From Candidatus Schekmanbacteria bacterium (GTDB taxonomy: Bacteria; CSSED10-310; JACPHN01), in contig JACPHN010000234.1 in the NCBI GenBank assembly GCA_016188575.1, positions 1 to 28,652 of the forward strand: a DNA stretch of 28,652 nucleotides. The letters are read 5' to 3'. Below the pieces are notes generated by a model. It saw nothing but the letters and a program-made list of their open reading frames with translations, did not search any database and was not told where the DNA came from. A program made the position numbers and the translations under genes. Position 1 is the stretch's first letter. Each line of letters opens with the position of its first letter. Below, one piece after another: positions 763 through 18,903 of this stretch.

Positions 763-3345
763 ATGGTGAATGAGATTGTGAGCGCGGCGCTCGCGCTGCT
801 TCGCCTAAAGTGGCTCGTGGGCGGTCTCGACGTTCCCGCCTTCGCGCTCATCGCCAGTGGTTTCCTGCTCGCGTTCACGTTCGGCATCTGGCTGTGGCTG
901 CGAGTGCGCGTATTTCGAGATAGGCGGCGCCACCAGAGCGCGGTTCGCCTGCTCAAGGGCATCCGCGACAGCCATCCGGCCACGCCCCGAGAGGGACTGC
1001 CCGGAGCCGCCTATGAGGACATTCGGCGCGTCTTCGAGAAGTCGAAGACTCTGAAGGACTGTTGGGAAGATTTCGACTCGCGGATCCTCGTCCGGCGAAG
1101 CCGCTCTGGAGGAGAAGACCAGAGGTGGGCCTCGGAGAGCGCCGAGGCGGCATTCGGCGAGACCGCGGTGATCGACGCCCACTTGAACCGAACGTTCTAC
1201 TCGGCCATTCCCGGCATCGTGACCGGCATTGGCCTCTCGGTGACCTTCCTCGCGATCCTCGTCGCGCTCCTCGACGTACGGCTCGTCGAGAACCGGGTCC
1301 AGGGGCTCGACCAACTGATCCAGGGGCTGTCGGGCAAATTCGTGTCCTCGATCGCGGCGCTCCTGGCCGCGACGCTTTACCTGTTCTCCGAGCGATCGCT
1401 TTTCCATCGCCTCGACCGCAGCCGCCGACAGCTCGTCCGCGGCCTCGACAAGCTCATTCCCCGCCTGTCCCCCGGCCACCTGCTCGTCGACCTTCAAGGG
1501 GATGCCCACGAGCAGGCGCTCGCCTCGCGCCACTTCAGCGCTGACCTTGCCACCAAGGTCAGCACGGGGTTTCACGAGGGCCTCCGGCCAACGTTGGAGC
1601 GGATGATCGAGACCATCGACGGGCTCGACCGGTCGATCCGCGCCGCCGAGGCCGCGAACCAGGAATCGATGCGAGGTTCGCTCGAGAACTTGCTGCAAGA
1701 TCTCTCGCGCCGCCTGACCGAGTCGATCGACGGCATGGCGACCCAGTTCAGGGAGCAACTGTCCGGGTCAGCGCTGAGACAGCTCGACCGAGTCGTCGAA
1801 TCGTTGGCGGCAACCAGCAGCGTGGTGGAGAAGATGAACGAGCAATCCACGACCTCGCAGGCCGCCTTGGAGAGGCTCATCGACCAGGCCCGCCGCTCGA
1901 CCGAGGAACAGCTCACGACGGGTCGAGAGCAGGTGGACGCGATCACCTCCGCCATCTACCAGATGATGGACCGCATGAGCCAGACCACGGACGCGTCGGT
2001 GGGCCGAATGGCCTCGGATCTGCGCGCCCTCCTCGACGACCTCGCCCGGCACAGTCGGGAGAGCGCCGAGGAGCAACGGACCGCGGGGCGCAAGCACGCC
2101 GAGGAGCTGGCCGGTATCTTGCGAGAGATCATGGCGAACGTGAGGGAGTCGACCGCCGCCTCGGTGAGCGAGCTCATCGCGTCGCTCGGTCAGTCGGTTC
2201 AGGGTTTCACGGCACAGGGCGCGGCGATGGCGCAGCGCATGGAGGCGCTGGTCGAGCAGGTGAAGGCGAGCACGGAAGAGCAGCGGTCGCTCGGTGCTCG
2301 GCACGTGGAGGATCTCGGCCAACGGTTCGAGCAGCTCATGGCGCGCGTCGCCCGGTCGACGGCCGACTCGGTCGATGACGTTGCTGGGCGGCTCGCGCAC
2401 GCGATCTCCGAGCTTTCGGCCCAGATGCAGGAAGCGACCGGCAGCTCGATGGTCCAGATGACGCGAGAGGTCCAGGAGATGCTCGAGGCGCTCGCGCGGC
2501 ACGCCCGCGAAAGTGCGGAGGCAGAGCGGGCGCGAGGGCGAAAGATCGCCGAAGACCTCGGCGGCGTCTCGGAAGACCTCATGGCTCGGCTCCAGGGCAC
2601 GACCGCGACATCGGTCGAGCGCGTGGGGTCGTCGCTGGCCGAGGCGGCGGAGAGGTTCAAGGCGGAGGCCGCGGAGATGGCCGACCTCATGAAGACGTCT
2701 TTGCTGGAGAGCGGCACCAAGGTCATCGGCGCCGCGGATCGAGTCGTCGACCGCGTCGAGACCTGGTCGACGCAGTCACATTCGCAGCTCGCGCGCGTTT
2801 TCGGGCAGCAGGAGTCGCAGCTCGGCCGCATCGAGGAGGTGCGAAAAACGCTCGACGACCTGCTCCACCGGTTCCCGCACGCCATCGAGCAACATGGGCG
2901 GCTCGCCTCCGAGCTCGTCCGAGTCGCGGCCCTGGTGAAGGAAGCTGCGGAGACCGCGGCGCAGGCTGCGGCGCTCATGAGGGAGGCTCAACCCTCCTTC
3001 CAGCAGGTCTCCGTAGCGGCCGCCTCACAAGTCCGCGATCTCGCTGCGGCAAACGGGCAGCAGCAGGAGACGTGGATGAGAATCGAAGCGAGCATGGGCC
3101 GGTACCAGGTCGTCTTCGGAGAGGTGGAGGCGAAGGCCGGGGCGATCATCGGCCAGATCAATCAGGGCCTGCGAGACTACATGGAGGCGTCACGGGATGG
3201 GTTCGACCAGCTCGTGAGGATCTCGGACGAGCACCTCAAGAACGCGGTATCGCGGCTCGGGCAATCCGTCGGGGAGCTCGACGACCACCTCCAAGATCTG
3301 AACGAGGCGCTCGACCGCATACCGAAGCAACCGGTGAGGGGGTAA
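763..3345 (+). CDS. zorA: ZorA: MotA/ExbB-like stator with very long coiled-coil tail
   Basis: This 860-residue protein has three hydrophobic helices near the N-terminus (about 26-47, 145-170 and 190-212), including a PGIVTGIGLSVTF segment typical of MotA/TolQ/ExbB channels. A tail of about 640 residues follows, rich in Ala, Glu, Gln and Arg with heptad character and no further membrane segments. In Zorya, ZorA forms a pentameric ring around a ZorB dimer in the inner membrane and its tail carries a signal to cytoplasmic effectors. I recall characterised type I ZorA as roughly 700 residues, so this tail is on the long side. It contains four degenerate copies of a unit with an S-x-E-E-Q...G-R...E-L core, at about residues 374, 429, 500 and 578. 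The start is ATG 763 behind GAGAGG (755-760), or possibly the next codon GTG 766. It is the first gene of the zor operon. The call rests on fold plus context and is strong. Confidence 0.9.
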   Translation: MVNEIVSAALALLRLKWLVGGLDVPAFALIASGFLLAFTFGIWLWLRVRVFRDRRRHQSAVRLLKGIRDSHPATPREGLPGAAYEDIRRVFEKSKTLKDCWEDFDSRILVRRSRSGGEDQRWASESAEAAFGETAVIDAHLNRTFYSAIPGIVTGIGLSVTFLAILVALLDVRLVENRVQGLDQLIQGLSGKFVSSIAALLAATLYLFSERSLFHRLDRSRRQLVRGLDKLIPRLSPGHLLVDLQGDAHEQALASRHFSADLATKVSTGFHEGLRPTLERMIETIDGLDRSIRAAEAANQESMRGSLENLLQDLSRRLTESIDGMATQFREQLSGSALRQLDRVVESLAATSSVVEKMNEQSTTSQAALERLIDQARRSTEEQLTTGREQVDAITSAIYQMMDRMSQTTDASVGRMASDLRALLDDLARHSRESAEEQRTAGRKHAEELAGILREIMANVRESTAASVSELIASLGQSVQGFTAQGAAMAQRMEALVEQVKASTEEQRSLGARHVEDLGQRFEQLMARVARSTADSVDDVAGRLAHAISELSAQMQEATGSSMVQMTREVQEMLEALARHARESAEAERARGRKIAEDLGGVSEDLMARLQGTTATSVERVGSSLAEAAERFKAEAAEMADLMKTSLLESGTKVIGAADRVVDRVETWSTQSHSQLARVFGQQESQLGRIEEVRKTLDDLLHRFPHAIEQHGRLASELVRVAALVKEAAETAAQAAALMREAQPSFQQVSVAAASQVRDLAAANGQQQETWMRIEASMGRYQVVFGEVEAKAGAIIGQINQGLRDYMEASRDGFDQLVRISDEHLKNAVSRLGQSVGELDDHLQDLNEALDRIPKQPVRG

Positions 3346-3351
3346 GCGCCG

Positions 3352-4074
3352 TTGGCAGCGAGCGGAGATGGCACGGGAGCGCTTTCGAGCTCGATCACCG
3401 ACCTGATGACGTCGCTCGCGGTCATTTTCATCCTGCTGCTGGTGGCCTCGCTCAACAACGCCCAGCAAGAAGGTGAGCAGACGCGAAACGCCATCGTGGC
3501 GGCGCTGCTCCGGGAGCTGCAGAGCTTCGTGGTGCGCGGCGTCGAGGTGGAGACCGACCCCAAGGACCCGCTCAGCCTCCTCGTCCTCGTCCCCGAGGGG
3601 TTGCTCGAGTTCGCGCTCAATGACGATCGCATCCCCAGCGGGGGGGTCGATTTTCTCGGCGACTTCATTCCGCAGCTCGCGAGCGCCACCTGCTCGCCGC
3701 GGTTTCGCCAGGAGCTGAGCTCGATCGTGGTCGAGGGGCACACCGACTCGACAGGTGGACCGGCGATCAACTTACCGCTCAGCCAGCGGCGGTCGATGTC
3801 CGTCTCCAAGGAGAGCCTGAGGATTCTGAGCATGCCCGGCGCCGAATCGGCGGCCGATCTGAGCACCTGTTTTCTGGAGCTGCTCTCGGCGAGCGGGCGG
3901 GGCAGCGTCGAGCCGATTCTCGACGCCAACGGCCAGGAAGACTGTGCCCGGAGCCGGCGCGTCGTCTTCAAGATCCGGGTCCGCTCGATCGAGCAAAAGG
4001 AGCTGAAGGAGATCCTGGGTGGGCCCGCGCCCGCGCTTGCCCGCGGAGATGGAGATGAACGAGACCGCCATTGA
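3352..4074 (+). CDS. zorB: ZorB: MotB/OmpA-like peptidoglycan-binding motor partner
   Basis: The 240-residue product has one N-terminal transmembrane helix preceded by TDLMTS. The Asp at position 17 is in the place of the proton-carrying Asp of MotB (DLM). A C-terminal OmpA/MotB domain follows, with the EGHTDS peptidoglycan-binding motif at about 127-132, an LSQRRS helix and a final RSRRVVF strand. Known role: two copies sit inside the ZorA ring and anchor the motor to the cell wall. Translation probably starts at TTG 3352, six bases after the zorA stop, with a GAGGGGG Shine-Dalgarno overlapping the end of zorA. Later ATGs would remove the functional Asp. The 3' end overlaps zorC by about 20 bases, indicating coupling. 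Three cysteines in the periplasmic domain are a small oddity. Confidence 0.9.
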   Translation: MAASGDGTGALSSSITDLMTSLAVIFILLLVASLNNAQQEGEQTRNAIVAALLRELQSFVVRGVEVETDPKDPLSLLVLVPEGLLEFALNDDRIPSGGVDFLGDFIPQLASATCSPRFRQELSSIVVEGHTDSTGGPAINLPLSQRRSMSVSKESLRILSMPGAESAADLSTCFLELLSASGRGSVEPILDANGQEDCARSRRVVFKIRVRSIEQKELKEILGGPAPALARGDGDERDRH

Positions 4075-6208
4075 CCTGGCCGACGCGCTCCGCGGCTTGG
4101 AGGTCGCCGTCCGGGAGCTCCGTCAGGAGACCGCGCGTTTCCAGGCTCGCTTGCCCGCCCGGCTCGAGCGCCTCGATAAAAGTCTCACGGCCGCGGTCGC
4201 CGCGATCCCGGCGGCATCCTGTCGGCGGCTCACCTGTCCCCCGGACTACACCCGACAGTGGGAGGACTGGCTCGCCAGACGGCGGCCGAACCTCGACCCC
4301 CGCGCCATCCGCTACCTGTGCTGGGAACCGAGCGTGGCGATATCACCGCGCTTCCAGGATGTTCTCGACCACGCGGAGGCCGACTTGTCGGCGCGAGCGC
4401 TCCACGGTCTGGTGCATTCGTGTCACGCCCGCTGGTGCGGGGACCTCGCCGGTGGGTCGATCGTCCGGCGAATTCGCGGGCGGCTCGAAGCGTACCGCGG
4501 AAAGAATCGCGTGATCGGAAAGTGGCGGGCGAGCTCGCGCTACCTGCTTGGGCCGGATGCCCCGGGAGCGCTAGGAACACGGCTCGTCGGCGAGCGTGGG
4601 AAGGTCGAGGCGCTCTGCAAGGATTGGGGCCTCGATCCCGGCTCGCCCTTCGTGGCCGCAGTCGTTCGCGATGCCGCTGCGATGATTCGGGCCTCGGGTC
4701 AGGCGGAGCCGACGCGCTACCTGATCGACGAGCTCCTGCCCTGGCCCGGGCTCGGGATCGAGGACTTCAAGGCGGAGGTCGCGGCGACCATCCTACATGC
4801 CGCCGGCGAACCCTCGGCGGGACCGCGCGAGGCGCTCAAGGTATTCATCCTACGAGAACCCCGCCTCGGTGACCCCCGTCTGCCGCGAAACCGGGCGAAA
4901 TGGCACGCTGTCCCCGAGAACGCGCAACGCCGCTTTGTTGAGTGGATGTCGGCGGCGGACATCCGATTCTTCTTCGACCACGTCCTGCCGGACGGACTCG
5001 ACTGGCACGGGCGCAAGGCATTCTGGCTACAGTACGTCGACGGCAACGCGCTTCTCTCTCGGCCGCTGCTGTGCGAGAGCGACCGGCGTCGGCTCATGCC
5101 CGAGCTCGGGAAGAATGAAGAGGCAATCGGGCACTTCGGCCGGATAAGGGGCCAACAGGGTGTCAGCGCGTTCGTGCTCGACTTCGGATCCGTAGTCGCG
5201 ATCGAGTTCAGCAAGATGGGCCGATGCTACTTTTATGACCACGCCACGCTGGTGAAGCTCGTCGGGGACGTCTGGGCGGACCATCCGTTCGCCGCGTCGG
5301 AGCTGAAGCACACGAGAACTTGCCTGGACTCCGTCGCGCATTTGCATGGCTGGGAAGATAGGATGTCGGACATCCTGGCGGGCCATGGCGTGCACCGCGG
5401 CCGCTTGTCGTCGCCATCGCCCGGGCTCAGGGCCGGCGAATCGGGCATGCGCGAACCGCGAGATCCGCGAATCGACGCGATAGACCCCATGGCGGGGCAG
5501 ATGCGGCACTTCGAGCTGACGCCCGGAGTGTCGGTCCAGATGGTATGGGTGCCGCCAGGAAAGTTCTGGATGGGAGCGGATCGGGAGCTGGACTCCATGG
5601 CGTACGCTAATGAGCGACCGCGACACGAGATCGAAATTACGCAAGGCTTCTGGCTGGGCGCGTTCCCGGTTACGCAGGGACAATGGCAGGGGGTCGTGGG
5701 GTTACACCCGAGCAGCTTCAAGGGAGCCAACTTCCCCGTGGAAAGCGTATCGTGGGAAAATGTCCGATGGTTCATGACGCGCGTGAACAGTGGGGGAGCT
5801 TCGACCTATCGCCTACCGACCGAGGCGGAGTGGGAATACGCCTGTCGCGCGGGAACAATGACGAGCTACTCTTTTGGGAAAGACAGCGTGGTGAATGACC
5901 ATGCATGGTACGAGAGCAACTCCCGAGGCGCGACGCACCCCGTAGGTGCGAAGCGGCCCAACGCGTGGGGTCTGTACGACATGCTGGGTAACGTGTTCGA
6001 GTGGGTGGAGGATAGCTATGACGAGTTTGCTTATTCCAGGCACGCTCCGCAGAATCCGATCAATCACTCTCCTGATTCCAGACGTGTAGCTCGCGGCGGT
6101 TGTTACCACAGTGGCTTCGTCCAGCTCCGGGTGACTCATCGCCTTGGCGTTGACCAATGGACGAGGTTCAGAGACGTCGGTTTCCGCCTGGTGAGGAGTG
6201 GCGCATGA
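4055..6208 (+). CDS. zorC: ZorC (EH-signature protein) fused to a formylglycine-generating-enzyme-fold domain
   Basis: I chose ATG 4055 (717 residues) because GGAG at 4045-4048 lies six bases upstream. GTG 4019 and ATG 4049 are in frame alternatives. Residues about 1-450 read as an EH-signature protein: a helical, Trp/Arg-rich domain with the typical RRF-x-W...FF and KAFWLQY blocks (about 292-330), ending in a His/Trp-containing helix. In Zorya, ZorC is the DNA-binding partner between the ZorAB motor and ZorD. After a linker, residues about 482-717 are a complete FGE/SUMF1-like domain: PGKFWMG, ERPRHEI, PVTQGQW, RLPTEAEWEYACRAG, GLYDMLGNVFEWVED and a terminal GFRLVR. The two copper-binding cysteines of true FGE are not at their expected sites: only one Cys (683) lies near RGG. 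It is therefore probably a binding module of the C-type-lectin fold, not an oxidase. DNA for this domain has lower GC (32-35 of 60 in two lines counted, against 44 of 60 in a zorC N-terminal line), suggesting a later acquisition. Confidence 0.85.
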   Translation: MNETAIDLADALRGLEVAVRELRQETARFQARLPARLERLDKSLTAAVAAIPAASCRRLTCPPDYTRQWEDWLARRRPNLDPRAIRYLCWEPSVAISPRFQDVLDHAEADLSARALHGLVHSCHARWCGDLAGGSIVRRIRGRLEAYRGKNRVIGKWRASSRYLLGPDAPGALGTRLVGERGKVEALCKDWGLDPGSPFVAAVVRDAAAMIRASGQAEPTRYLIDELLPWPGLGIEDFKAEVAATILHAAGEPSAGPREALKVFILREPRLGDPRLPRNRAKWHAVPENAQRRFVEWMSAADIRFFFDHVLPDGLDWHGRKAFWLQYVDGNALLSRPLLCESDRRRLMPELGKNEEAIGHFGRIRGQQGVSAFVLDFGSVVAIEFSKMGRCYFYDHATLVKLVGDVWADHPFAASELKHTRTCLDSVAHLHGWEDRMSDILAGHGVHRGRLSSPSPGLRAGESGMREPRDPRIDAIDPMAGQMRHFELTPGVSVQMVWVPPGKFWMGADRELDSMAYANERPRHEIEITQGFWLGAFPVTQGQWQGVVGLHPSSFKGANFPVESVSWENVRWFMTRVNSGGASTYRLPTEAEWEYACRAGTMTSYSFGKDSVVNDHAWYESNSRGATHPVGAKRPNAWGLYDMLGNVFEWVEDSYDEFAYSRHAPQNPINHSPDSRRVARGGCYHSGFVQLRVTHRLGVDQWTRFRDVGFRLVRSGA
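6086..6205 (+). other. C-terminal segment of the ZorC fusion resembling a DGR variable region
   Basis: The last 35 or so codons have the layout RGG...LR-x-x-x-R...D-x-x-x-R-x-x-x-V-GFRLV. This is the layout of the C-terminal ligand-binding loop in FGE/CLec-fold proteins, and it is the site hypermutated in proteins served by diversity-generating retroelements. At the positions usually varied (after RGG and between the conserved Arg residues) most codons end in C or T, including seven consecutive ones (TGT to GTC), as expected if derived from adenine-mutated AAC/AAT codons. High-GC codon use also favours this ending. No template repeat or reverse transcriptase is in the window, so this is a resemblance only. 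Confidence 0.35.
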
Positions 6209-6250: not shown

Positions 6251-9200
6251 GTGGCTCGACCGCGGCAAGGACCGGAGGACGAGTGGCTGCTCCAGGAGCC
6301 GGCGCAGGGACTTCGGCTCCTGGGCGAGGCCGATTCTGTCCGCCTCCGAGGCGCCGAGCTCGACTCCGGCGAGCTTCGCGAGCTCCGTGCCGCGGAGCCC
6401 CGCACGCGCCTCGGCCGGCTCCTCCCGATTCTCGTGCCGCAGCTCCTGGAGCTCGCCGCGGCCTACGCGGAGCCCGGCGCCATCCGGATCCCGTACGATA
6501 CTTTCGTGGACCTGGAGGCCCGCGGCATAGACGCCTTCGCCGACGTGGCTCCGTGGGCACCGTTCGCGCTCGAAGTCGAGTCCCGCGGATCGCTCGGCCG
6601 AGCGGAGCTCGCCTTCTTCCCTCGCTTCTACCTCGGAGCCCGCGTCGTCCACCTTGAACGCCGCGGGTGTTTTGTCCGCCATGCGGGCGCGATCCACCGC
6701 CTCGACCCTCGCGCCTTCGCGCTGCTCGACGCGGTCGACGCCTTCAATCAGACGGCCGAGGAGCGGCGGGCGTCTCCGGAGGCCCTGCGTCTCTTTGTCT
6801 CCATCCGCCGGCTAGCCGAGGCGGCCGACATTCGGTTGGACGAGTACCTCGCGAGCGAGCGCGTGCTGATCCCGGCGCGAATCGGTCTCGAGGTGTGCCA
6901 CGAAGAGGGGGGCCGCGCTTCCTTCGCGCCGCGGATCGAGGGCGCGCCTGCCATCGCCATGCGACAGGCGTTCCTCGCGTCGAACGACGCGCAACCGGTC
7001 TACTCGCTCGACGCCGGGAACGGGCGCATCAGGGTCGTGCTCGATGACACCCAGCGGGAGGTGCTCCGCCGGATGCAACGCGTTCGGCACGTCGGCGGCG
7101 AAGCGCGAGCCGCGGTCCTCCGCGACCCGGACGCGGTGTTCGATGGGGTGGCAGCAGCCGTGGAGGTCCCCGTCGAGCGTTCCGACGCCGGGCGGGCGCC
7201 AGAGCTGGACCCGAACGGCGATCGAGAGGGCCAGCACGCCGCGGGGGAGATGCCGCCTGCGATCGGCCAGGAACCCGAGCGGGATGAAGACTCCGCGCCG
7301 CGCGTTGAGCGCGACTTCCAGAGTCGGAAACCTCGGCCCTTGGGAGAAATCCCCGCCACGGAATGCGAAACGGACGCCCCCGACCTGCCTCGGGCGCTCG
7401 CTCCCGGCGTCCGACTGAAAGACCATCAACGCGACGGAATCGCGTGGCTCCAAAGAAGCTTCCGGCTCGAGCGCACGGGGTGCCTGCTGGCCGATGACAT
7501 GGGTCTGGGCAAGACCCTCCAAGTGCTCGTCTTCCTGGCGTGGCTCATCGAGCGCGGCGAGCTCGGGGGGCCAGGACCAGCGTCCGACGCGGGTCCATGG
7601 GACCCGATCCTGATCGTGGCGCCGCTCATGCTGCTCGACAGCGCCACCTGGGTTGGCGACATGCGGAAGTTCTTCGAGCACGGCGGAGCGGTGTTCGAGC
7701 CCTGTCTCACGCTGCACGGTATGGCGCTCGCGGAGATGCGCCACGACCACGCGGCGGGGCGGGAGGCGCTCGTCGGGCGGCCCGTGCTCGACCTCGAACG
7801 CCTCCGCCGGCACCGCGTCGTCCTCACCAACTACGAGACGATCACCAACTATCGCCATTCTTTCGCCACGATGCCGTGGACGGTCATCGTAACCGACGAG
7901 GCACAGGAGCATAAGACGCCCGAGACGAAGGTGTCCCGGGCGCTGAAGAGCCTGCGGGCGCGCTTCCGGATCGCGGCCACCGGGACGCCGGTGGAGACAC
8001 GGCTGCGCGACGTGTGGAACCTGTTCGACTTCTTGCAGCCTGGCCGGCGGCTGCTCGGGGACGTCGCGCAGTTTTGTCGGGACTACGAGGCTCCCGGCGC
8101 AGTCGGCGCGCTCAAGGCTCGGCTCGGGTTCGGCCGGCTCGACGCGCTGCTCCTCCGGCGAGAAAAGTCGATGCTCGCCGACCTGCCGGCCAAACGGACC
8201 CACGTGCTGGACGCCGACCTCTCATCGCGCCAACGCGACTGGCACCTGGACCTGGTGAACCGGGCGCGCACCGGGCAGCCCGGCCTTCACCCGCTCGCGC
8301 TCGTCCAGCACCTGATGCGGCTCTACCAGCATCCCGCGCTCTTCCCCACCTACGATCCGCCGCGGACCGCGCGGGAAGCGGTCGCGTCGTGCCCGAAGCT
8401 CGCCCGGGTCGTCGATCGCCTCCGGGAGATCCGGGCGCTGGGCGAGAAGGCGCTGGTGTTCACGCGCATTCTCGACATGCAGCACCTCCTGTCGGTGGTG
8501 CTCCAGGCCGAGCTCGGGATCGACGCGGAGATCGTGAACGGCGCGACGCCGCGCCAGGGCGGGGAAAACCGGACGCGAGAGGCGATCGTGCGGCGGTTTC
8601 GGGAAAAACCTGGCTTCGAGGTACTGATCCTGTCGCCGGATGTCGCCGGGATCGGGCTGACGCTCGTCGAGGCCAACCACGTGATTCATTACGGCCGCTG
8701 GTGGAACCCGGCGCGGGAGTCGCAGGCAACCGACCGAGTCCACCGAATTGGGCAGGACCGGGAGGTGCACGTCTATTTTCCGATCGCCCGCGACCCGGCA
8801 CGCAACCTGTCTACGTTCGACGAGCGGTTGGACGCTCTGCTGAAGCGGCGGAGCGCGTTGGCGGCGGAGTTCCTGGTGTCGATGCCGAGCGAGGAAAACC
8901 TCGAGAAGGAACTGTTGGGCGACCTGCTGGCAGGCGACCCGGCGGCGGAGGCAGAACCGGCGAGCGGCGCGCTCGAGCCACTCACCCTGGAGGATGCACG
9001 CGGCCTCGCCGAGGATCGGTTCGAGGCGCTGATCGCGGCGCTGGAGGAGAGGCAGGGAGCTTGCGCCGTCCTCGGGCCCCGCGCGGGAAGCGGAGGAATC
9101 GACGTTGTCGCGATTCGTACGGGTGGGCCGGCCAGACCCGGGGAGGTCCGGCTGGTGCATGTCCCGAAGGCGAGCTCGGGGTTCGACCTGGAAGCGGCGA

Positions 9201-11245
9201 TCTCCACGGCCCGCGACGCTGCGGAGGCGTTTCAGCGGCGGCTCCACGAAACCGACGGGGCGCGGACGGTGCTTGTCACGGCAGCGTCGCTGGGATGGTG
9301 GTCGCGCCGGCGGGCGGCGCGCCGAAACGAGGTGGAGGTCGTCGACGGGGGGGCGCTCCGGGAGCTGCTCGCGCGATTCCCGTGCAGCCTGGGGGACGTC
9401 GAAGCGATGGAGGGTCGACGGTGCCGCTCGCTGCGGGAGATGCAGTCCGAGCTGGTCCGGATTGGGGTGGCAAAGCGCGAGGCGGGGCAGCGCGACCTTT
9501 CGTCGCCTCACGGCCACGCCGAGATCTCGCGGCGCCTCGCCGCACGACTCGATCGCTTCTTTGCGGCGGCGGCCGAACGTAGCGCGGCCGGGACGCCGTC
9601 CGACGCCGAAGTGTGGAGCGCCGCGGTCGTCTGTTTGGATGCCGCGGCGGGCGGCCTTTGCCTGGAGGTGGGACCGCTTTCGGGCCTGCCTTCCTTCGTG
9701 AAGCGGATCGGCGTCGAGGGGCAGAGTTGGAGCTCGCACGTCCTCGCGTCCAACGTCCGGCAACGCGCCGTCCAAATCCCGGTGCCGCCCGCGAGCGGCC
9801 CATGGCGGTGGTCGGCGGTGGGATTCGAGGACGACGTCGACCTCGCGGCGCTCGCGCTCCCGCGCCTCCCGGATCGCCCCGCTCAGGTTTTCCGCGTGGA
9901 TGCGGCGGGAGTGGGCCGAAGGATCGAGAGCGCCTCGCTTTCGCCCGGCGATCGGTATCGGGTGTTGGTGCCGAGTTGGGCAGCCGACCCGAACGGGTTC
10001 CTGTGCCCGCTCGCAGCGGGGTGGCGCCTTTGGGAGCTGGAGGTGTCGCGACCCATGCCGCCGGCGGCTGCGGACCTTGCGCGGCGCCTCGGCCTCGAGA
10101 TCGGAGAGCCGCAACCTCGCCTCGATTGGGTGCTCACGCCGCCCGCCGCCTGGCGAAGAACCGTACGAGGCGAGGTCTATGCGTGCTTCGTGGCGGGGGA
10201 GAGCCCGGTCATGGAGCTGAGGGCTGGTCACCTCGAGGCGGATGGCGAAGTGGTGGCCTTTCTGCATGGAATCGACGGCACGATCTCGCGCGACCTCCCT
10301 GCGGGGCAGCGCCACCTCCTGCGGCTCGCCGGTCTCGGGCCGGGGCGCTATGCAGCGATGGTGATCCATCAGCGGACGGCGTTTCCCCCGGCGGAGCTCG
10401 TGTTCGAGATCATCGCCGAACCGCCCGCGTCCCCGAGGGCCGCCGCGAGGCTCGCGATCGGCGTCGAAGTCTACGAGGCGCATCCCGGAAAGGTGGTCGC
10501 GACGCCGGCTCGGGATCTCGCCGAGCAGTCGCTGCTGAATGACCTGGCGATCGAGGCCACGCCGGGGTGGCCCGTGAGGATTTCGTGGAGAGAGGTCGCC
10601 GACGAGTTGCTGGTGCGGCGCTCGGTCGACGCGGGCGGTCGGTTGGATGACCTCGAGTCGGTCGCGGACCGCATCCGCGAACGCCTCCGGCGCCGGCCGA
10701 TCGGCGATGTCATGATCGATTTCGGCGAGCTTGGTAGGATCGTCCTTCGGCACGAACGCCGCCAGGACCCAGATACCCTCAGAAAGCGCCTGGCAGAGCT
10801 GGTCGCGAGCCGGGGGCGGGCCGTCTCGAATCAGCCCGGCGCCTGGGCGAGCCTGCTTCGGATCTGGTTCGAACCCGTGTTGGCAATCCTCGGCTTCGAT
10901 GTCGCGCCCATCGCCGAGGGGGAGCTGCCCGGGCCGGCCGCCGAGGCCGCAGTCTTTCGACTCCTCCACGTCGAGCGCCGCGGGAGTCGCATCGAGGGCG
11001 GTGTCGTGCGCATCCTCATCCTGCTCGGCGACCTCGCGCCGGCCCTGCCGCCACCGCTGGCCGCGTGGATCGATGAGGCGTGCGCGCAGTCAGGGGTGCG
11101 AGAAGCCGTGCTCACGGACGGCTGGCGATGGGCGACGCGCCGCCGGGCCTCGAGACTCGACTTGCGCATCTGGGACCTGGCCCTGGCCGTGAAAGATGAG
11201 GAGACGTTCCGGGAGTTTCTGCGCGAGGCGTCGGAGGGGGTGTGA
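6251..11245 (+). CDS. zorD: ZorD: SNF2 helicase with Mrr-like segment and large C-terminal extension
   Basis: The 1664-residue product has an N-terminal region of about 380 residues, then a SNF2 ATPase. Walker A ADDMGLGKT includes Lys421, the Walker B/motif II is DEAQ at 549-552, ATGTP is motif III, and QATDRVHRIGQ (825-835) is motif VI. Residues about 915-1040 look like an Mrr-type PD-(D/E)xK fold, with GGIDVVAI (Asp951) and a VPK strand (Lys973), where the usual Gln/Glu before Lys is Val. About 600 further residues of beta-rich, unassigned sequence follow. I recall type I ZorD as nearer 1100 residues, so this is oversized. Known role: DNA translocase/nuclease effector. GTG 6251 is the start used here, but no Shine-Dalgarno precedes it. 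The frame is the same as zorC, with only TGA 6206-6208 and 42 bases between, so the true N-terminus is uncertain. The 3' end overlaps the next ATG. Confidence 0.85.
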   Translation: MARPRQGPEDEWLLQEPAQGLRLLGEADSVRLRGAELDSGELRELRAAEPRTRLGRLLPILVPQLLELAAAYAEPGAIRIPYDTFVDLEARGIDAFADVAPWAPFALEVESRGSLGRAELAFFPRFYLGARVVHLERRGCFVRHAGAIHRLDPRAFALLDAVDAFNQTAEERRASPEALRLFVSIRRLAEAADIRLDEYLASERVLIPARIGLEVCHEEGGRASFAPRIEGAPAIAMRQAFLASNDAQPVYSLDAGNGRIRVVLDDTQREVLRRMQRVRHVGGEARAAVLRDPDAVFDGVAAAVEVPVERSDAGRAPELDPNGDREGQHAAGEMPPAIGQEPERDEDSAPRVERDFQSRKPRPLGEIPATECETDAPDLPRALAPGVRLKDHQRDGIAWLQRSFRLERTGCLLADDMGLGKTLQVLVFLAWLIERGELGGPGPASDAGPWDPILIVAPLMLLDSATWVGDMRKFFEHGGAVFEPCLTLHGMALAEMRHDHAAGREALVGRPVLDLERLRRHRVVLTNYETITNYRHSFATMPWTVIVTDEAQEHKTPETKVSRALKSLRARFRIAATGTPVETRLRDVWNLFDFLQPGRRLLGDVAQFCRDYEAPGAVGALKARLGFGRLDALLLRREKSMLADLPAKRTHVLDADLSSRQRDWHLDLVNRARTGQPGLHPLALVQHLMRLYQHPALFPTYDPPRTAREAVASCPKLARVVDRLREIRALGEKALVFTRILDMQHLLSVVLQAELGIDAEIVNGATPRQGGENRTREAIVRRFREKPGFEVLILSPDVAGIGLTLVEANHVIHYGRWWNPARESQATDRVHRIGQDREVHVYFPIARDPARNLSTFDERLDALLKRRSALAAEFLVSMPSEENLEKELLGDLLAGDPAAEAEPASGALEPLTLEDARGLAEDRFEALIAALEERQGACAVLGPRAGSGGIDVVAIRTGGPARPGEVRLVHVPKASSGFDLEAAISTARDAAEAFQRRLHETDGARTVLVTAASLGWWSRRRAARRNEVEVVDGGALRELLARFPCSLGDVEAMEGRRCRSLREMQSELVRIGVAKREAGQRDLSSPHGHAEISRRLAARLDRFFAAAAERSAAGTPSDAEVWSAAVVCLDAAAGGLCLEVGPLSGLPSFVKRIGVEGQSWSSHVLASNVRQRAVQIPVPPASGPWRWSAVGFEDDVDLAALALPRLPDRPAQVFRVDAAGVGRRIESASLSPGDRYRVLVPSWAADPNGFLCPLAAGWRLWELEVSRPMPPAAADLARRLGLEIGEPQPRLDWVLTPPAAWRRTVRGEVYACFVAGESPVMELRAGHLEADGEVVAFLHGIDGTISRDLPAGQRHLLRLAGLGPGRYAAMVIHQRTAFPPAELVFEIIAEPPASPRAAARLAIGVEVYEAHPGKVVATPARDLAEQSLLNDLAIEATPGWPVRISWREVADELLVRRSVDAGGRLDDLESVADRIRERLRRRPIGDVMIDFGELGRIVLRHERRQDPDTLRKRLAELVASRGRAVSNQPGAWASLLRIWFEPVLAILGFDVAPIAEGELPGPAAEAAVFRLLHVERRGSRIEGGVVRILILLGDLAPALPPPLAAWIDEACAQSGVREAVLTDGWRWATRRRASRLDLRIWDLALAVKDEETFREFLREASEGV

Positions 11246-12255
11246 TGGAGATTCAGATGCTCGATCTGGAAGAGGCTCGCCAGCTTCTGGACGAGGGCGC
11301 GGACGGCGCGCGGCCGGAACGGGACGCGATCGCCGAGCTGCTGCGGCAGGAGGTCTTCGCGCGCGGGAGCTGTGCGCGCCACCTGGCTAGCGCCCGGGTG
11401 GTCAGTATGGCGCGGCCGGCCAGGGAGCTCGACCCCGAGCAGGTCGACGAGGTCTGCGAGGAGCTCGAGAGGGACGGAGACCTGGTTCTCGCCGAGGGCG
11501 CCATCCTCTACCCGGCACCCGTACGCATCGTGGACCTGGGCGACGGGGTTTTCCGCTTCGCGGCGGGGCTCCCGAGCCGGGCGCTGTGCGCTGCGGTCAC
11601 CGGTGACTGGGTGCGGCAAGGAACCCGCAGGGAATGCCGGACGACGTCGCCGATCGCGGACGTTGCCGTTTCCTTGGGCGGGATTGTCTTGACGCCCAGC
11701 GCGTGGGCGGGGCTCGACCGGGCACCGGTGGCCGACGCGCTCTTCCTCGGCGAGCTAGACGCCCGGCTGGAAGCGGCACCCGAGCCGACCGGGAGTCGCG
11801 AATGCGGCGATGGGCTCGACTGGTCGAGCTGCGAAATCGCGGCGGACGGAGCCCGATGGCGCCGGGCGGTGGCCCAGGGAACCGCGAGCCGGTTGTGGCG
11901 GGCGCATCAGCCGTGGCGCCGTTGGGTGCACGCGTGGACGGGAGGCGAGTCGCCCGCCCGCCAGACGTTCACGCCTCTACATGGGGACGAGGCCGCGCGG
12001 GCCGTCCATGCGCTCGCCGTCGCGGCCGGCACGCCGCTGCGGGCGGTGCCAGAGCGCCGGCGAGACGTCGTCGTGGTCACCTTTCCGGAGCGGCTTCCGC
12101 TTGCCGAGCACCGCTACCTCGCCGTCTCGGCGCAGCGCGAGCCGTCGGCCCGCGGGTGCCGCTGGACGATTCCCGCGGCGAGGTTCGACGCGGTGAGCGC
12201 CACGCTCGCGACCCGCCTCGGGATGGTTTTCGAACCGAGCGGCAAGAAGCCATGA
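11245..12255 (+). CDS. Unknown 336-residue protein translationally coupled to zorD
   Basis: ATG 11245 shares its A with the zorD stop (TGATG) and has a strong GGAGGGGG at 11233-11240, so it is co-translated with zorD. I do not recognise the family. The protein is soluble, with no signal peptide or membrane helix. Residues about 25-90 (LLRQEVFARGSC... ending in a short DGDLVLAEG hairpin) could be a winged-helix-like DNA-binding unit. The middle is Trp-rich (WRRAVAQG, LWRAHQPWRRWVHAW). The C-terminal 80 residues alternate strands and helices and end in a basic GKKP. It is not one of the standard Zorya components I know (ZorA-G). Coupling argues for a stoichiometric partner of this enlarged ZorD, but that is inference. 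Confidence 0.75.
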   Translation: MEIQMLDLEEARQLLDEGADGARPERDAIAELLRQEVFARGSCARHLASARVVSMARPARELDPEQVDEVCEELERDGDLVLAEGAILYPAPVRIVDLGDGVFRFAAGLPSRALCAAVTGDWVRQGTRRECRTTSPIADVAVSLGGIVLTPSAWAGLDRAPVADALFLGELDARLEAAPEPTGSRECGDGLDWSSCEIAADGARWRRAVAQGTASRLWRAHQPWRRWVHAWTGGESPARQTFTPLHGDEAARAVHALAVAAGTPLRAVPERRRDVVVVTFPERLPLAEHRYLAVSAQREPSARGCRWTIPAARFDAVSATLATRLGMVFEPSGKKP

Positions 12256-12262
12256 GGTACCG

Positions 12263-12727: not shown

Positions 12728-12793
12728 GAGGAAGATCGGCGGGCGCGACGGCAGGCGCAGGATACCGGGACGGATGACAGCCGGCGCAGAGGG

Positions 12794-12928
12794 CTAGCGG
12801 CGTACCTCGCGGGTGACGCGCGCGGCCAGGACGAGCCCCGCGGCATGGCGATCGGAACGGACGTCCTTCCAGTGGCCGACGAGTCCCAGGCAGACCTTGC
12901 CGAGAAAATGCACGAGATCAAAGTCCAT
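12794..12928 (-). pseudogene. Possible N-terminal part of the interrupted minus-strand gene
   Basis: In the same frame as the gene ending at 12263, ATG 12926-12928 opens 44 codons (MDFDLVHFLGKVCLGLVGHW...) terminated by TAG 12794-12796. Sense continues directly after the TAG. One explanation is a single gene with a nonsense mutation. Another is two genes, the second starting at GTG 12727. The hydrophobic-aromatic start looks like protein, but I have no family match. A long GC palindrome lies just upstream of this ATG. Confidence 0.35.
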
Positions 12929-12955
12929 CGCCCATTCGCCGCCGGCGCGACAGTG

Positions 12956-13146: not shown

Positions 13147-16100
13147 ATGTACGTCCTCAAGCTCGCCAAATATGCTGACGAAGACGGCCAGCTCAACGAT
13201 CCTGACGACGCCCGGTTTCTCCGCCAGCGCAAATGGACTTCCGAGACAATCCTCGACTTCACGGGCGTCGAGGTCGTGGGTGAGCAATTCCTGAATGCGC
13301 TTCTCGAGGGCGAGGGCGCCGAGACGATCCGCGGACGGATCACCGGCGTCGGCCCGTCGGTGGAAGTCGCGGTGGCGAGGTGGGCGGACAGCCGCGGGCG
13401 CTCGCGGGAGCGAGTTTGTCATCCGGCGCCGACCCCCGCTTCGCCAGGCGTACCGACAGCGCCGCCCGCCGATCACCGCTACACTGCCATGCGACTGGTC
13501 AGGCGGCTCGAGGAAACGCTCCGAAGCTACCTCGAAGGCGCCTTCCCGCTCGCGGACCCGATCCTGGTGCGAGCGCGCCGGCTGCTCCTCGAACAGGAGG
13601 CCGGAGGTCGGCTCCTCGCACAGCAACCCTTCGTCGAGACGAATGCTCGCTTCGCGACCTCGGCGCGCTCCTACGACGAGCTCGGCTTGCCTCCTCGGGT
13701 CGCCGGTCTCTTCACGCGCCTCGCGGCCACGCCGAGCGGCGACGCGGAGTCGAATCGAACCGTTCTCTTCCCCCGGTTCTACGTCCATCAAGAAGAGGCG
13801 TTCCGCCGGCTTCTGGTGGAGAAAAGGGACCTGGTTGTCGCGGCGGGAACGGGATCCGGAAAGACGGAATGCTTCCTCGTGCCGATTCTCGGGGCGCTCT
13901 ACGACGAGGCCACGGCGAGGCCGGAGTCGTTCGCCATGCCCGCGGTCCGGGCGCTCGTCCTCTACCCGATGAACGCGCTCGTGAACGACCAGCTCGCTCG
14001 CCTTCGCCTGCTATTCGGCGATCCCGCGGTGGCCGCAGCGTTCCGGGAAGCTGGCGCCGGGCGCGTGCCGCGCTTCGGGATGTACACCGGCCGCACTCCC
14101 TACCCCGGCCCGCGGACGGCGGCGAAGGATGCAGATCGGGTCGCGCCGCTCCTCGAGCACTATCTCGGCCTCCACGAGGAGGTCGAGCGGCGACTCCGCC
14201 TCCTCGGGCGCTACCCCGCCAAGGACCTCCGCAGGTTCTACGGCGAGCACGAATGCCGGCGGGAACCCTGCCGGTCGGGCCCAAGCGCCGGCCAGGAGCG
14301 CACGCGACACCACTGGGACCGGCGCCTGCACACCGGCGAGGACGACCGCGAGCTCGTGACGCGGCACGAGATGGTTCACGGAACCGGATCGTTGCCGGGC
14401 GGCTCGCCAGACATTCTGATCACGAGCTACTCCATGCTCGAGTACATGCTCATGCGCCCGTTCGAGCGGCCGATCTTCGAGCAGACTCGGGCGTGGCTGG
14501 CGCGCGAAGAGAGCCGCCTGTACCTCGTGGTCGACGAAGCCCATACCTATGGCGGCGCTCGGGGAGCGGAGGTGGCGTTCCTGCTTCGGCGTCTATGCGC
14601 CCGCCTTGGCCTCCGCGAGCAACCGGGGCGCCTTCGCGTGGTCATCGCCAGCGCCTCGCTCGGCGATGGGACCGACGCCGCCCTGGCCGCCAGACGATTT
14701 GCCGCCGACCTCTCCGGGAAGGCCCCAGATGATTTCGCCGTCGTCAACGGAAAGCCCGAGATGCCTGCGCCGGCGCAACCCGGGACTCGGGTCGAGGCGG
14801 ATGCGCTCGCCAGGCTCGAGCTCGATCGGCTCCACGAGCCGCGGGATGGGGCCGATCTGCTCGATTGCCTGCAGCCGCTCTTCCGGTGCTACGGGGTGAA
14901 ATGCCCGTCCGCGGAGGAATCCGAGGTGGTGCGGACCCTTTACGGGGTGCTCGACGGCCGGCCGATGGTCGGTCAATTCCTCCGTGAGACGGCCGGCTGC
15001 GCGCTACCCATCGAGCCGCTTGCTGCCAAGGTTTTCCCGGGCCACCCGCAGGCGCTGCAGGCGCTCGAGTCCTTGATCGTGCTCGGGACACTCGCCCGGT
15101 CGCGCCAGGATTCACCCAGTCTGATGCCGGTCCGCGTCCACGCGATGTTTCGCGCTCTCGACGGCCTTCATGCCTGCATCAACCCGTGCTGCTCGGGGAG
15201 GCAGGCCGAGCCGGGGAAACGTGCCGCCGTCGGGCGCCTCTACACCGCACCGCGGGTGCAATGCGAGTCCTGCGAGGCGCGGGTGTTCGAGCTGGCGTCG
15301 TGCCGGAGCTGCGGCAGCGCCTACCTCATGGCCTACGTCGAGCCGGGCCGCGCGGGTCAGCCCGATTTTCTGTGGGGCGAGATAGAGGGCGGACTGGAGC
15401 GCGTGTACGTGCTGCCGTCGGAGCCGCGCTACCCCGACCAGATGGAGGAGGTTCGCGTCCATCTCCGCACGGGTTATCTCGACCCCGGCTGCCGCTTCCC
15501 GGACCAGCACGTCGGCCGATTCTTCCTCGGCCCGAGGGGCGAGCTGCCGCGGTGCGCGATGTGCCAGACGAGAGGGAGCGGCCGGATCTTCGATTTCCGC
15601 ACGCAGGGCGAGGGACCGTTTACGGCGCTCGTCGAAACGCAGCTCGCGGAGCAGCCGCCGCAGAGCCGCGATGAGTCCCTTCCCAATCGCGGCCGGAAGG
15701 TCCTTGTCTTTAGCGATGGACGCCAGCGGGCGGCGCGCCTCGCCCCTGCCATCGAGTCGACCCACGCCCGCCACCTCTTTCGGCAGGTCCTCGCGCTCGC
15801 CGCCCGAGAGCTCGCCAAAGAGCAGCGGTCGGGTATGCACTTGTTGTATCCAGCCGTCGCCTGGCTCGGCGGCAATCGGGGATGCGACCTCTTTCCGTCC
15901 GTGGACGAAGTGGAATGGGCAAGACACCTTCGCTGCGTCGAAAATCGAACGCTCGGCGAAGCCATCGAGCTTTTCAACCGCGGCAGGCTCCGGCCCACGA
16001 CCTCCTTTGCAAAGAGCCTCTTCGACGAGCTGACGGACCGCTACTACTCGATGCCCGCCCTCGGGCTGGCGACCATCGAGGAGGATGGGGACCTGGCGAA

Positions 16101-18903
16101 CGACCTCCGCATCTTCGACGGTTTCCCCGACGTCGGGCTCGATGGGGAGGCGATCCGAGCGCTGCTGCACGCCTGGATCAGACTCCACTTCGAGCGGCGC
16201 ACGTTCAGGCCGGATGGCGCCGAGCTCGGTCAGCTCGGCGAAGGTTGGGCGGTCCCGGTGGGGATCCGGGCCGAGAATGTGAGGCACGTGCTCCCGGGTA
16301 GATTTCCGGACTACCTCCGGCGGGCATTGGCGGGAGACGAGACGGCGGTGGGCAGGGTGGAGACCTGGTTCCAGTGGCTGGTCCGCCAATCGGATCTCCT
16401 TCTCTTCACAGGGGACCGGTACTACCTGCAGCCGGAGGGGCTTTCGGTGAAGCTTCGCATCGACCAAGGATGGCTCCGGTGCCAGGATTGCGGACGCCTG
16501 TACGCCGAGGGTCTCGATAGCGTGTGTCCGGCGTGCCTCGGGGGGCTCGTGGTGGCCGATTCGAGCTACCTGTCCGCTCGAACCGGGTTTTATCGCTCAC
16601 AGGTGCAGCGGGCACTCGAGGGTCGCGGGCTGGAGCCGTTCGGACTGTCGACGGCCGAGCACACTGCGCAGCTCACGGGCCGTTCGGCCGACGGCGCCTT
16701 CAACAAGGTGGAGGAGTACGAGCTGCGCTTCCAGGACCTACCGATCGGGCGTCCCATCGACGTCTTGAGCTGTACGACGACGATGGAGGTAGGCGTGGAC
16801 ATCGGAGCGCTCGCGGGCGTCGCCCTGCGCAACGTCCCGCCGCACCCGGCGAGCTACCAGCAGCGAGCCGGCCGCGCGGGACGCCGGGGTCGCTCCATCG
16901 CGTCCGTCGTCACCTATGCCCACGGGACCTCGCACGACGCCCAGTTTTTCGAACATCCGGAGGACATGATCGGCGGACCGGTTCGCCCCCCGATCGTGTA
17001 TGTGGAAAACCAGCACGTGCTCGCTCGCCACGTCCGGGCGTACCTGTTGCAGCGCTTCTTTCACGAGCAAGTTCCGGCCGATGCAGGATCCAGGACGTGG
17101 GTGCTGTTCGAGTCCCTGGGGACGGTGGAACAGTTTCTGTCGGGCGAGTATCCGTGCGCGCTCGGCCGCCTGGAAGCCTGGCTCGGCCAAAACGAAACCC
17201 GCCTGCGAGAGGAGCTTCGCGGCTGGGTGCCGACTTTCAGTTTCGGCTCCGAGATGGTCATTGGTGGAGTGGCCGGGACGATAGAGCGGGCGACGCAAGA
17301 GCTCATGGGCCAGCTTCGGGCGGCCTTGCCCGTGGAGGAGGCGACACGACGAGACGCGCTGGCGGGACTCGAGCGCGAAACGCTCGAACGCAGGCTCGAG
17401 GAGCTCCTGCTCGAGTCGTTGATGAGTCGAGCGATCCTGCCTCGTTACGCCTTCCCGATGGATGTCGTCGGCTTCTGGGTGTCGCGACCGCGCCGTCCCG
17501 GTGATCCGCTCTGGCGCCGGACCTTCGAGTACGAGCCGCAGCGCGAGCTGCAGCTCGCGCTGACAGAGTATGCACCCGGTCGAACGCTGACGATCGACAA
17601 GCGGCGCTTCGAATCCGCGGCGATCTACTCTCCGTACGCGCCGAGTCTCCGTCCGATGCTCGAACGCCGGCAGCCCTACGCGATGTGCCCCGCCTGCCCC
17701 TTCGTCAGCTTGAAGAGCAGCACGGGGAGCCTGGAGCGATGCCCGTGCTGTGGCAGCGGCGGGCTTGCGCGCGGGTGGTTCGTGACACCGCCGGGGTTCG
17801 CCCCCGATATCCACGCGAGGCCCGAGCTCGACCGCGGCGGGACGATCACCGATTCAGGGCGCGCGGATCGGGCGCGGCTCGAGGTCGAGGACCCTCCCAC
17901 CCGGTGGGACGCCGTCCTGTACGCTGGCCGGCTGCGCCTGTGGAACGGGCCGCAGGCGCTTTGCGCCATCAACCGAGGGCCGCACGGCGCGGGTTTTCGA
18001 ATCTGTCCGGAATGCGGTCGGGCCGAGCCCGAGCGGGCGTCGACCCTACTGCGGAAAGGAAGGTCGGTCGAGCACCGCCACCCGCTCGAGCAGGGCGTCA
18101 TCTGCCGCGGGGTAGCTTGCGGCCCGTTCTACCTCGGCTATCGATTCCCGACGGATGTGCTGCTGCTCCGGCTCGAAGTTACACCTCCCGTGACCCTGTG
18201 GACGCCCGGGCGGCCGGGCTTCCTCGGACGTGCCGCCAGGGTTGCCCTCACGTCGCTCGTCGAAGCCGTCGCCATCGCCGCATCGCGCGAGCTTCAAATC
18301 GGCGAGGGAGAGCTCTCGGGCTGGTGGGCTCCTCTCCCTACCCACAGCGCCGGACAGGCTCAGCTCTACTTCTACGACCTCCTGCCCGGCGGCGCGGGCT
18401 ACGCGCGCGCCCTGGGCCGGGCGGCAGGGGCGGTGCTCGCCGCCACGGAACTGTTGCTCGACGCCTGCGACTGTATTTCGTCCTGCTACCGCTGCATCCG
18501 AAGCTACGCGAACCACGGCCTGCACGCATCGCTCGACCGGCACCTCGCGCTCGGGCTGCTGCGGTACATCCGGGCGGGAGTGGTGCCCTCGGTCAGGCCG
18601 GCGGAAGGCCGAGCGGCGCTCCGCCCGCTGGTCGAGGTGCTGCGCGTTCGCGGGTGGACAGGGCCGCGCGAGGAAGCGTTCGACGGGGTTGACGTTCCGT
18701 TGTCGGTCATGCGGCCGGATGGGCAGGAAGCGCGGATCGGTGTTCACCATCCGCTCGTGGCCCCGCTCTCCGCGCGCCGCGCGACCGCCCCGGCCGGGCG
18801 GAGCGAGCACAACGAAATTGACACCTTCGCGCTCGCGCACGACCTACCGTCCGCCGTCCGCAGCTTGGAGCCGCACCTGAGCGGCGAGCCGGCTCATGAG
18901 TAG
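13147..18903 (+). CDS. Giant DEAD/DEAH helicase with C-terminal DUF1998 and N-terminal STAS-like segment
   Basis: The 1918-residue frame from ATG 13147 has several parts. Residues 1-95 resemble the STAS-like DUF4325 family (ETILDFTGVEVVGEQFLNALL). From about 115 a superfamily 2 helicase begins: a YVHQEEAF Q-like motif, Walker A GTGSGKTE (Lys239), LYPMNAL, DEAH (463-466), SASLG and VFSDGRQRAA. A four-Cys zinc knuckle lies at 706, 709, 719 and 722, two more CxxC pairs follow later, and QQRAGRAGRRG is motif VI. Residues about 1690-1830 are DUF1998, with YDLLPGGAGYA and a Cys cluster (1774, 1776, 1780, 1783) like the metal site of MrfA-type helicases. Family members act as 3'-5' helicases in repair or as effectors in phage defence (DISARM uses a DrmA/DrmB pair). 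An alternative start, ATG 13489, would yield the helicase alone, but neither start has a good Shine-Dalgarno. It may act with the Zorya genes or be an independent system. Confidence 0.85.
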   Translation: MYVLKLAKYADEDGQLNDPDDARFLRQRKWTSETILDFTGVEVVGEQFLNALLEGEGAETIRGRITGVGPSVEVAVARWADSRGRSRERVCHPAPTPASPGVPTAPPADHRYTAMRLVRRLEETLRSYLEGAFPLADPILVRARRLLLEQEAGGRLLAQQPFVETNARFATSARSYDELGLPPRVAGLFTRLAATPSGDAESNRTVLFPRFYVHQEEAFRRLLVEKRDLVVAAGTGSGKTECFLVPILGALYDEATARPESFAMPAVRALVLYPMNALVNDQLARLRLLFGDPAVAAAFREAGAGRVPRFGMYTGRTPYPGPRTAAKDADRVAPLLEHYLGLHEEVERRLRLLGRYPAKDLRRFYGEHECRREPCRSGPSAGQERTRHHWDRRLHTGEDDRELVTRHEMVHGTGSLPGGSPDILITSYSMLEYMLMRPFERPIFEQTRAWLAREESRLYLVVDEAHTYGGARGAEVAFLLRRLCARLGLREQPGRLRVVIASASLGDGTDAALAARRFAADLSGKAPDDFAVVNGKPEMPAPAQPGTRVEADALARLELDRLHEPRDGADLLDCLQPLFRCYGVKCPSAEESEVVRTLYGVLDGRPMVGQFLRETAGCALPIEPLAAKVFPGHPQALQALESLIVLGTLARSRQDSPSLMPVRVHAMFRALDGLHACINPCCSGRQAEPGKRAAVGRLYTAPRVQCESCEARVFELASCRSCGSAYLMAYVEPGRAGQPDFLWGEIEGGLERVYVLPSEPRYPDQMEEVRVHLRTGYLDPGCRFPDQHVGRFFLGPRGELPRCAMCQTRGSGRIFDFRTQGEGPFTALVETQLAEQPPQSRDESLPNRGRKVLVFSDGRQRAARLAPAIESTHARHLFRQVLALAARELAKEQRSGMHLLYPAVAWLGGNRGCDLFPSVDEVEWARHLRCVENRTLGEAIELFNRGRLRPTTSFAKSLFDELTDRYYSMPALGLATIEEDGDLANDLRIFDGFPDVGLDGEAIRALLHAWIRLHFERRTFRPDGAELGQLGEGWAVPVGIRAENVRHVLPGRFPDYLRRALAGDETAVGRVETWFQWLVRQSDLLLFTGDRYYLQPEGLSVKLRIDQGWLRCQDCGRLYAEGLDSVCPACLGGLVVADSSYLSARTGFYRSQVQRALEGRGLEPFGLSTAEHTAQLTGRSADGAFNKVEEYELRFQDLPIGRPIDVLSCTTTMEVGVDIGALAGVALRNVPPHPASYQQRAGRAGRRGRSIASVVTYAHGTSHDAQFFEHPEDMIGGPVRPPIVYVENQHVLARHVRAYLLQRFFHEQVPADAGSRTWVLFESLGTVEQFLSGEYPCALGRLEAWLGQNETRLREELRGWVPTFSFGSEMVIGGVAGTIERATQELMGQLRAALPVEEATRRDALAGLERETLERRLEELLLESLMSRAILPRYAFPMDVVGFWVSRPRRPGDPLWRRTFEYEPQRELQLALTEYAPGRTLTIDKRRFESAAIYSPYAPSLRPMLERRQPYAMCPACPFVSLKSSTGSLERCPCCGSGGLARGWFVTPPGFAPDIHARPELDRGGTITDSGRADRARLEVEDPPTRWDAVLYAGRLRLWNGPQALCAINRGPHGAGFRICPECGRAEPERASTLLRKGRSVEHRHPLEQGVICRGVACGPFYLGYRFPTDVLLLRLEVTPPVTLWTPGRPGFLGRAARVALTSLVEAVAIAASRELQIGEGELSGWWAPLPTHSAGQAQLYFYDLLPGGAGYARALGRAAGAVLAATELLLDACDCISSCYRCIRSYANHGLHASLDRHLALGLLRYIRAGVVPSVRPAEGRAALRPLVEVLRVRGWTGPREEAFDGVDVPLSVMRPDGQEARIGVHHPLVAPLSARRATAPAGRSEHNEIDTFALAHDLPSAVRSLEPHLSGEPAHE

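What the first reader, a model, noticed from the sequence alone, without database searches (positions are those of the whole stretch)
4055..6208. ZorC fused to an FGE/C-type-lectin-fold domain inside a Zorya operon
The EH-signature part looks complete and ends near 5400, yet the frame continues into a full FGE/SUMF1-like domain. I know of no Zorya type defined by this fusion. FGE-fold domains in conflict systems often act as ligand-binding modules, so this ZorC could recognise a specific phage or envelope ligand in addition to relaying the motor signal.
Basis: partly seen in the sequence, partly recalled or inferred. Interest (0 to 1): 0.8.

Follow-up and report, generated by a model that had tools for sequence, protein, structure and literature searches.

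The report
Zorya ZorC with added lectin-fold domain
A bacterial anti-phage motor system (Zorya type I) carries an extra lectin-like recognition domain fused to one of its cytoplasmic proteins, apparently picked up from another genome; it is an unusual variant of a known system, and what the added domain recognises is not known.

Summary
One uninterrupted 717-residue frame (4055-6208) joins a ZorC EH_Signature domain (E=1.9e-33) to a full FGE/SUMF1-type C-type-lectin domain (E=6.2e-44), inside zorABCD of Zorya type I. The E and H signature residues of enterobacterial ZorC are kept (E384, H419). The FGE part folds confidently (pLDDT 87) and best matches the Treponema DGR variable protein TvpA (Z 31, 1.9 A over 225 residues). 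It lacks the catalytic cysteines of formylglycine-generating enzymes, so it is probably a binding module. No DGR template was found in the held genome. None of 58 other ZorCs examined carries FGE; what follows their EH domain varies (a 'GGRLWV' module, a charged helix, or nothing). The window's ZorC branches with a tail-less group (support 0.956), and the FGE segment's third-position GC is far below the rest of the operon (z=-6), so the domain looks gained from a lower-GC donor. No described Zorya subtype with it was found. An envelope ligand is unlikely: ZorC has no membrane segment. Best reading: a new domain-architecture variant of Zorya I whose FGE domain is a cytoplasmic recognition or docking module. 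The fusion is shown; the function is inferred.

The parts
763..3345 (+). zorA: MotA/ExbB-like subunit with long coiled-coil tail (860 aa)
   Evidence: PADLOC ZorA1 E=7.1e-36; Apolipoprotein-like coil in tail
3352..4074 (+). zorB: MotB/OmpA-like subunit (240 aa, TTG start)
   Evidence: PADLOC ZorB1 E=2.4e-35; OmpA E=1.5e-06; one transmembrane stretch with Asp (ITDLMTSLAVIFILLL)
4055..5389 (+). zorC, EH_Signature part (residues 1-445)
   Evidence: PF15611 E=1.9e-33; PADLOC ZorC1 E=6.2e-18; E384 and H419 align with E400 and H443 of enterobacterial ZorC
5390..5509 (+). zorC, linker of about 40 residues
   Evidence: no domain match; most of it at pLDDT 44-64; still at operon GC3
5510..6208 (+). zorC, FGE/SUMF1-type C-type lectin domain (residues 486-717) and stop, non-catalytic
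   Evidence: PF03781 E=6.2e-44; model pLDDT 87, TvpA Z 31.3, rmsd 1.9 over 225; Ser686 in place of catalytic Cys336; GC3 0.70, z=-6
6251..11245 (+). zorD: SNF2 helicase plus Mrr-like nuclease (type I), with about 620 extra C-terminal residues
   Evidence: PADLOC ZorD1 E=1.4e-163; SNF2, Helicase_C, Mrr_cat
11242..12255 (+). gene overlapping the end of zorD; weak DruD-like similarity
   Evidence: PADLOC DruD E=5e-06, 23.7 bits; overlapping start
13147..18903 (+). druE-like (YprA-family) helicase, Druantia type I-like
   Evidence: PADLOC DruE1 1438.7 bits

Best explanation
This is a Zorya type I system whose ZorC gained a non-catalytic FGE-type C-type lectin domain in its variable C-terminal slot. 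Shown: the fusion, the operon, the fold (by a confident model), the missing catalytic cysteines, the slot, and a base composition that differs from the rest of the operon. Inferred: as in other Zorya I systems, ZorAB senses the infection at the envelope and recruits ZorC and ZorD in the cytoplasm; the FGE domain then acts as a cytoplasmic recognition or docking surface (for a phage protein, a phage-induced product, or a partner such as the ZorA tail, ZorD or the neighbouring Druantia-like proteins), helping to place or license ZorC-ZorD, in the position where other ZorCs have the 'GGRLWV' tail. It was probably captured as a ready-made domain from a lower-GC donor.
For: Fusion and operon. EH residues kept. 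Fold TvpA/PvdO/FGE. The aligned Cys336 column of human FGE (Ser in the C336S entry 2aft) is Ser686 here, the residue five further on (position of Cys341) is Leu691, and the domain has only two cysteines, 597 and 683. Variable slot and tail-less relatives. Gain: tree support 0.956 with tail-less ZorCs; GC3 0.698 against 0.838 expected, outside all 72 null windows and below nine FGE paralogues of the same genome (0.78-0.83). Cytoplasmic. Recruitment of ZorCD by ZorAB: PMC11890865. FGE/FGS domains as modules of conflict systems: PMC7159879; CLec fold as a general ligand-binding fold: PMC5006420.
Against: Only one instance of the fusion was found, so no conservation or selection on the fused form can be shown. 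No ligand is known. FGE-fold domains are abundant in this genome (22 matches) and such a join could arise with little function. The EH part could not be modelled well (pLDDT 52), so contacts between the two domains are unknown. The defence activity of this locus is untested.
Confidence: 0.55

Rival explanations
1. The FGE domain is a passenger: a recent fusion of a lectin-fold domain to a tail-less ZorC, tolerated but with little or no role in defence.
For: Single instance among 59 ZorCs; relatives keep Zorya operons with ZorCs that have no tail at all; foreign composition suggests a recent arrival.
Against: The frame is intact, the fold model is confident and core FGE motifs are kept; the same slot holds a conserved module in all the proteobacterial-type ZorCs examined.
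Confidence: 0.25
2. The FGE domain is a hypervariable receptor diversified by a diversity-generating retroelement (DGR), so that Zorya gains a changing recognition specificity.
For: Best sequence match among solved structures, and top structural match, is the DGR variable protein TvpA; FGS domains in VMAP systems are often DGR targets (PMC7159879).
Against: No second copy (template) of the 3' end anywhere in the held 9.2 Mb and only one partial reverse-transcriptase match, on another contig; no template-like repeat in the window.
Confidence: 0.06
3. The FGE domain is an enzyme (formylglycine-generating, sulfoxide-synthase-like or PvdO-like) that modifies a phage or host protein.
For: Fold shared with FGE, PvdO and EgtB.
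Against: The catalytic Cys pair of FGE is absent; no DinB-like domain, as EgtB has, was matched. PvdO-type chemistry was not tested.
Confidence: 0.06
4. Assembly chimera or sequencing error joining a ZorC gene to an unrelated FGE gene.
For: Draft genome; composition changes inside the frame; no second sequence of the locus.
Against: It needs two junctions, in frame, at the natural end of ZorC and just before zorD, within a contiguous operon.
Confidence: 0.05

Closest known systems
Zorya type I (zorABCD), e.g. enterobacterial plasmid-borne systems
   Same: All four genes, in the order A-B-C-D, with type I best hits for each; EH residues aligned
   Different: ZorC ends in an FGE domain where the others have a linker and GG-x-L module; ZorD is 1664 residues against 917-1337 in the frames examined; the proteins are divergent and lie below NCBIfam cut-offs
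FGE-type CLec variable proteins (TvpA) of diversity-generating retroelements
   Same: Fold: Z 31.3, 1.9 A over 225 residues, 32% identity
   Different: No template repeat and no nearby DGR reverse transcriptase
FGS (FGE) domains fused to vWA in VMAP ternary conflict systems (PMC7159879)
   Same: FGE-type CLec domain as a module of a multi-component conflict system
   Different: There it is fused to vWA, mostly in cyanobacteria and DGR-linked; here it is fused to ZorC and no MoxR-vWA pair was matched in the larger genes
Formylglycine-generating enzyme / SUMF1
   Same: Family and fold
   Different: Catalytic cysteines absent
Druantia (druE), which synergises with Zorya II when type III (PMC13192584, PMC12458937)
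   Same: A DruE1-class helicase gene follows the operon
   Different: Here it stands next to Zorya type I, with a weak DruD-like gene; Druantia type I genes A-C were not matched in the genes scanned

Membership tests
Zorya type I | ZorA (MotA-like) and ZorB (MotB/OmpA-like) encoded together | tested here: met
   ZorA1 7.1e-36 and ZorB1 2.4e-35, adjacent
Zorya type I | ZorC with EH_Signature domain and its Glu/His | tested here: met
   PF15611 1.9e-33; E384 and H419 align with E400 and H443 of an enterobacterial ZorC
Zorya type I | ZorD with SNF2 helicase and Mrr-like nuclease | tested here: met
   ZorD1 1.4e-163; SNF2, Helicase_C, Mrr_cat
Zorya type I | Anti-phage activity | not testable with these tools
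   needs an experiment
Formylglycine-generating enzyme (catalytic) | Catalytic Cys336/Cys341 pair (human numbering) | tested here: not met
   The corresponding positions are Ser686 (aligned) and Leu691 (counted on)
FGE-type C-type lectin fold | Fold match to solved FGE-type CLec proteins | tested here: met
   TvpA Z 31.3, PvdO Z 31.0, FGE Z 25-26
DGR target protein | Template repeat of the variable region and DGR reverse transcriptase | tested here: not met
   No second copy in the held genome; one partial RVT_1 match on another contig; the genome is 94% complete
VMAP ternary conflict system | MoxR-vWA-VMAP components in the operon | tested here: inconclusive
   Not among the Pfam matches of the larger genes; one sub-threshold VMAP-M7 match in the ZorD extension; the small genes were not scanned

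The most novel reading that the evidence does not exclude
A Zorya I branch in which ZorC carries an exchangeable receptor domain, so that motor-triggered recruitment of ZorC-ZorD is combined with recognition of a specific cytoplasmic ligand; the post-EH slot of ZorC would be a general site for swapping recognition or docking modules.
Probability: 0.3. Interest if true: 0.75.

Novelty: new variant of a known kind. Interest (0 to 1): 0.5.

Why it matters
How ZorC contributes to Zorya I is poorly understood. This locus shows that the region after the EH domain accepts entirely different modules, including a fold known for ligand binding, which makes the role of that slot directly testable by deleting or swapping it. 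If the domain does bind a ligand, Zorya would not be governed by the envelope signal alone.

Tried and rejected
DGR: no template repeat or DGR reverse transcriptase. FGE enzyme: catalytic cysteines absent. Second fusion: none in 12 GTDB relatives, in the phyla of G054 (24 of 386 genomes with matches), G035 (20 of 195) and G142 (2 weak of 392), in small phyla, in plasmids or in viral contigs. A 748-residue frame in G747 looked like a candidate, but its extra length was frame upstream of the gene. The other Zorya of the same genome (C167) has an unfused ZorC. A stand-alone FGE gene beside other ZorCs, which would suggest a split form, was not found in 660 kb of flanks. A joint alignment of EH and FGE relatives misaligned, so the two parts were modelled apart. 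The EH model has pLDDT 52 and was not used. The Nature 2025 Zorya structure paper is not held.

Full report
What is there. The frame 4055-6208 encodes 717 residues without a stop. It contains an EH_Signature domain (residues 92-395) and a full-length FGE-sulfatase domain (residues 495-714). The genes around it are zorA, zorB and zorD of type I by PADLOC. The window is one whole contig (C89) of a 9.2 Mb draft genome of 275 contigs (locus list). The EH part is complete: its E384 and H419 fall in the same columns as E400 and H443 of a ZorC from an Escherichia coli plasmid. From memory, these are the residues tested as the functional EH pair of E. coli ZorC; that paper was not available here.

The added domain. 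AlphaFold2 with 27 viral-contig relatives gives a confident model (pLDDT 87, pTM 0.86) with a low-confidence start, which is the linker. The best structural matches are TvpA, a variable protein of a diversity-generating retroelement (Z 31.3, rmsd 1.9 A over 225 residues), and PvdO (Z 31.0), with true formylglycine-generating enzymes at Z 25-26. In the sequence alignment to human FGE, the position of catalytic Cys336 is Ser686 here, and the position of Cys341, counted five residues on, is Leu691. The formylglycine chemistry is therefore very unlikely, and a binding role is the natural inference from this fold (PMC5006420). No template repeat of its 3' end exists in the held genome, and the only reverse-transcriptase match is partial and on another contig, so a DGR is not supported.

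Comparison with other ZorCs. I read the end of 58 other ZorCs, plus fragments. None has FGE. The 14 of one group (most from Beta-, Alpha- and Gammaproteobacteria, one in a MAG labelled Bacteroidetes) have a variable linker and a conserved module of about 50 residues with the motif GG-x-LWV; an enterobacterial ZorC has the same kind of end. Those of the phylum of G054, which I take to be cyanobacteria, end in a short charged helix-like tail. Most of those of the phylum of G035, which I take to be Myxococcota, stop directly after the EH domain. In an EH-domain tree the window's ZorC is sister to a tail-less group, with local support 0.956. The simplest history is gain of FGE by a tail-less ZorC, not replacement of the GG-x-LWV module. 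The branch to the window is long and its nearest relatives are far, so this placement should be read with care.

Origin of the domain. With the amino acids held fixed and codons drawn from the neighbouring genes, the FGE segment has GC3 0.698 against 0.838 expected (z=-6.0); the EH part (z=-1.6) and the linker (z=-0.2) do not differ. The deviation is outside all 72 windows of equal length from the other genes, and nine FGE domains of the same genome have GC3 0.78-0.83. The domain was therefore probably not copied from a paralogue in this genome but came from a lower-GC donor. No close donor was found: the best full-length identities are near 47-48%.

How it probably works. Published work has ZorAB sensing infection and recruiting ZorC and ZorD (PMC11890865). 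ZorC has no membrane segment, so the FGE domain should be in the cytoplasm, which argues against an envelope ligand. I think it most likely serves as a recognition or docking surface that helps to place or license ZorC-ZorD. The ligand is unknown, and a passenger role is the main rival. Related FGE/FGS domains act as modules in VMAP ternary conflict systems, often as DGR targets (PMC7159879).

Is it known? Searches of the open-access library for Zorya with formylglycine, or ZorC with fusion, found no description of it, and the Zorya paper read describes types I-III without this domain. Most subscription papers are not held, and protein architecture databases could not be queried, so absence is not proven. 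I file it as a new variant of Zorya type I, supported by one locus.

Context. zorD is followed by an overlapping gene with weak DruD similarity and a DruE1-class helicase (1438.7 bits). None of 14 other Zorya neighbourhoods fetched has a DruE homologue. [quoted passage not shown] a Zorya I plus DruE1 pairing is a separate lead.

Noticed in passing
window 9371-11245: ZorD carries about 620 residues beyond the Mrr-like domain with no Pfam family (one sub-threshold VMAP-M7 match, E=0.025); no homologue of this extension was found in the other Zorya loci fetched.
   Followed up: partly
window 11242-18903: A weakly DruD-like gene overlapping zorD and a DruE1-class helicase directly follow the Zorya operon: a possible Zorya I plus Druantia I-like island in which druA-C were not matched.
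   Followed up: partly
L183 (G000:C167:1-12715): The same genome has a second, divergent Zorya-type locus whose ZorC is not fused and ends in a coiled-coil-like tail.
   Followed up: partly
window 12263-12727 (-): A 154-residue frame on the opposite strand between the DruD-like gene and druE reads like a real or decayed gene, but matches no Pfam family.
   Followed up: partly
L027-L038, C-terminal ~50 residues of ZorC: A conserved GG-x-LWV module after a linker in proteobacterial ZorCs has no Pfam family; a similar end is present in enterobacterial ZorC.
   Followed up: partly
L172-L178, L180, L184, L185: In several Zorya loci of the phylum of G035 the SNF2 gene (zorD-like) lies upstream of zorA, giving the order D-A-B-C in place of A-B-C-D.
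   Followed up: no
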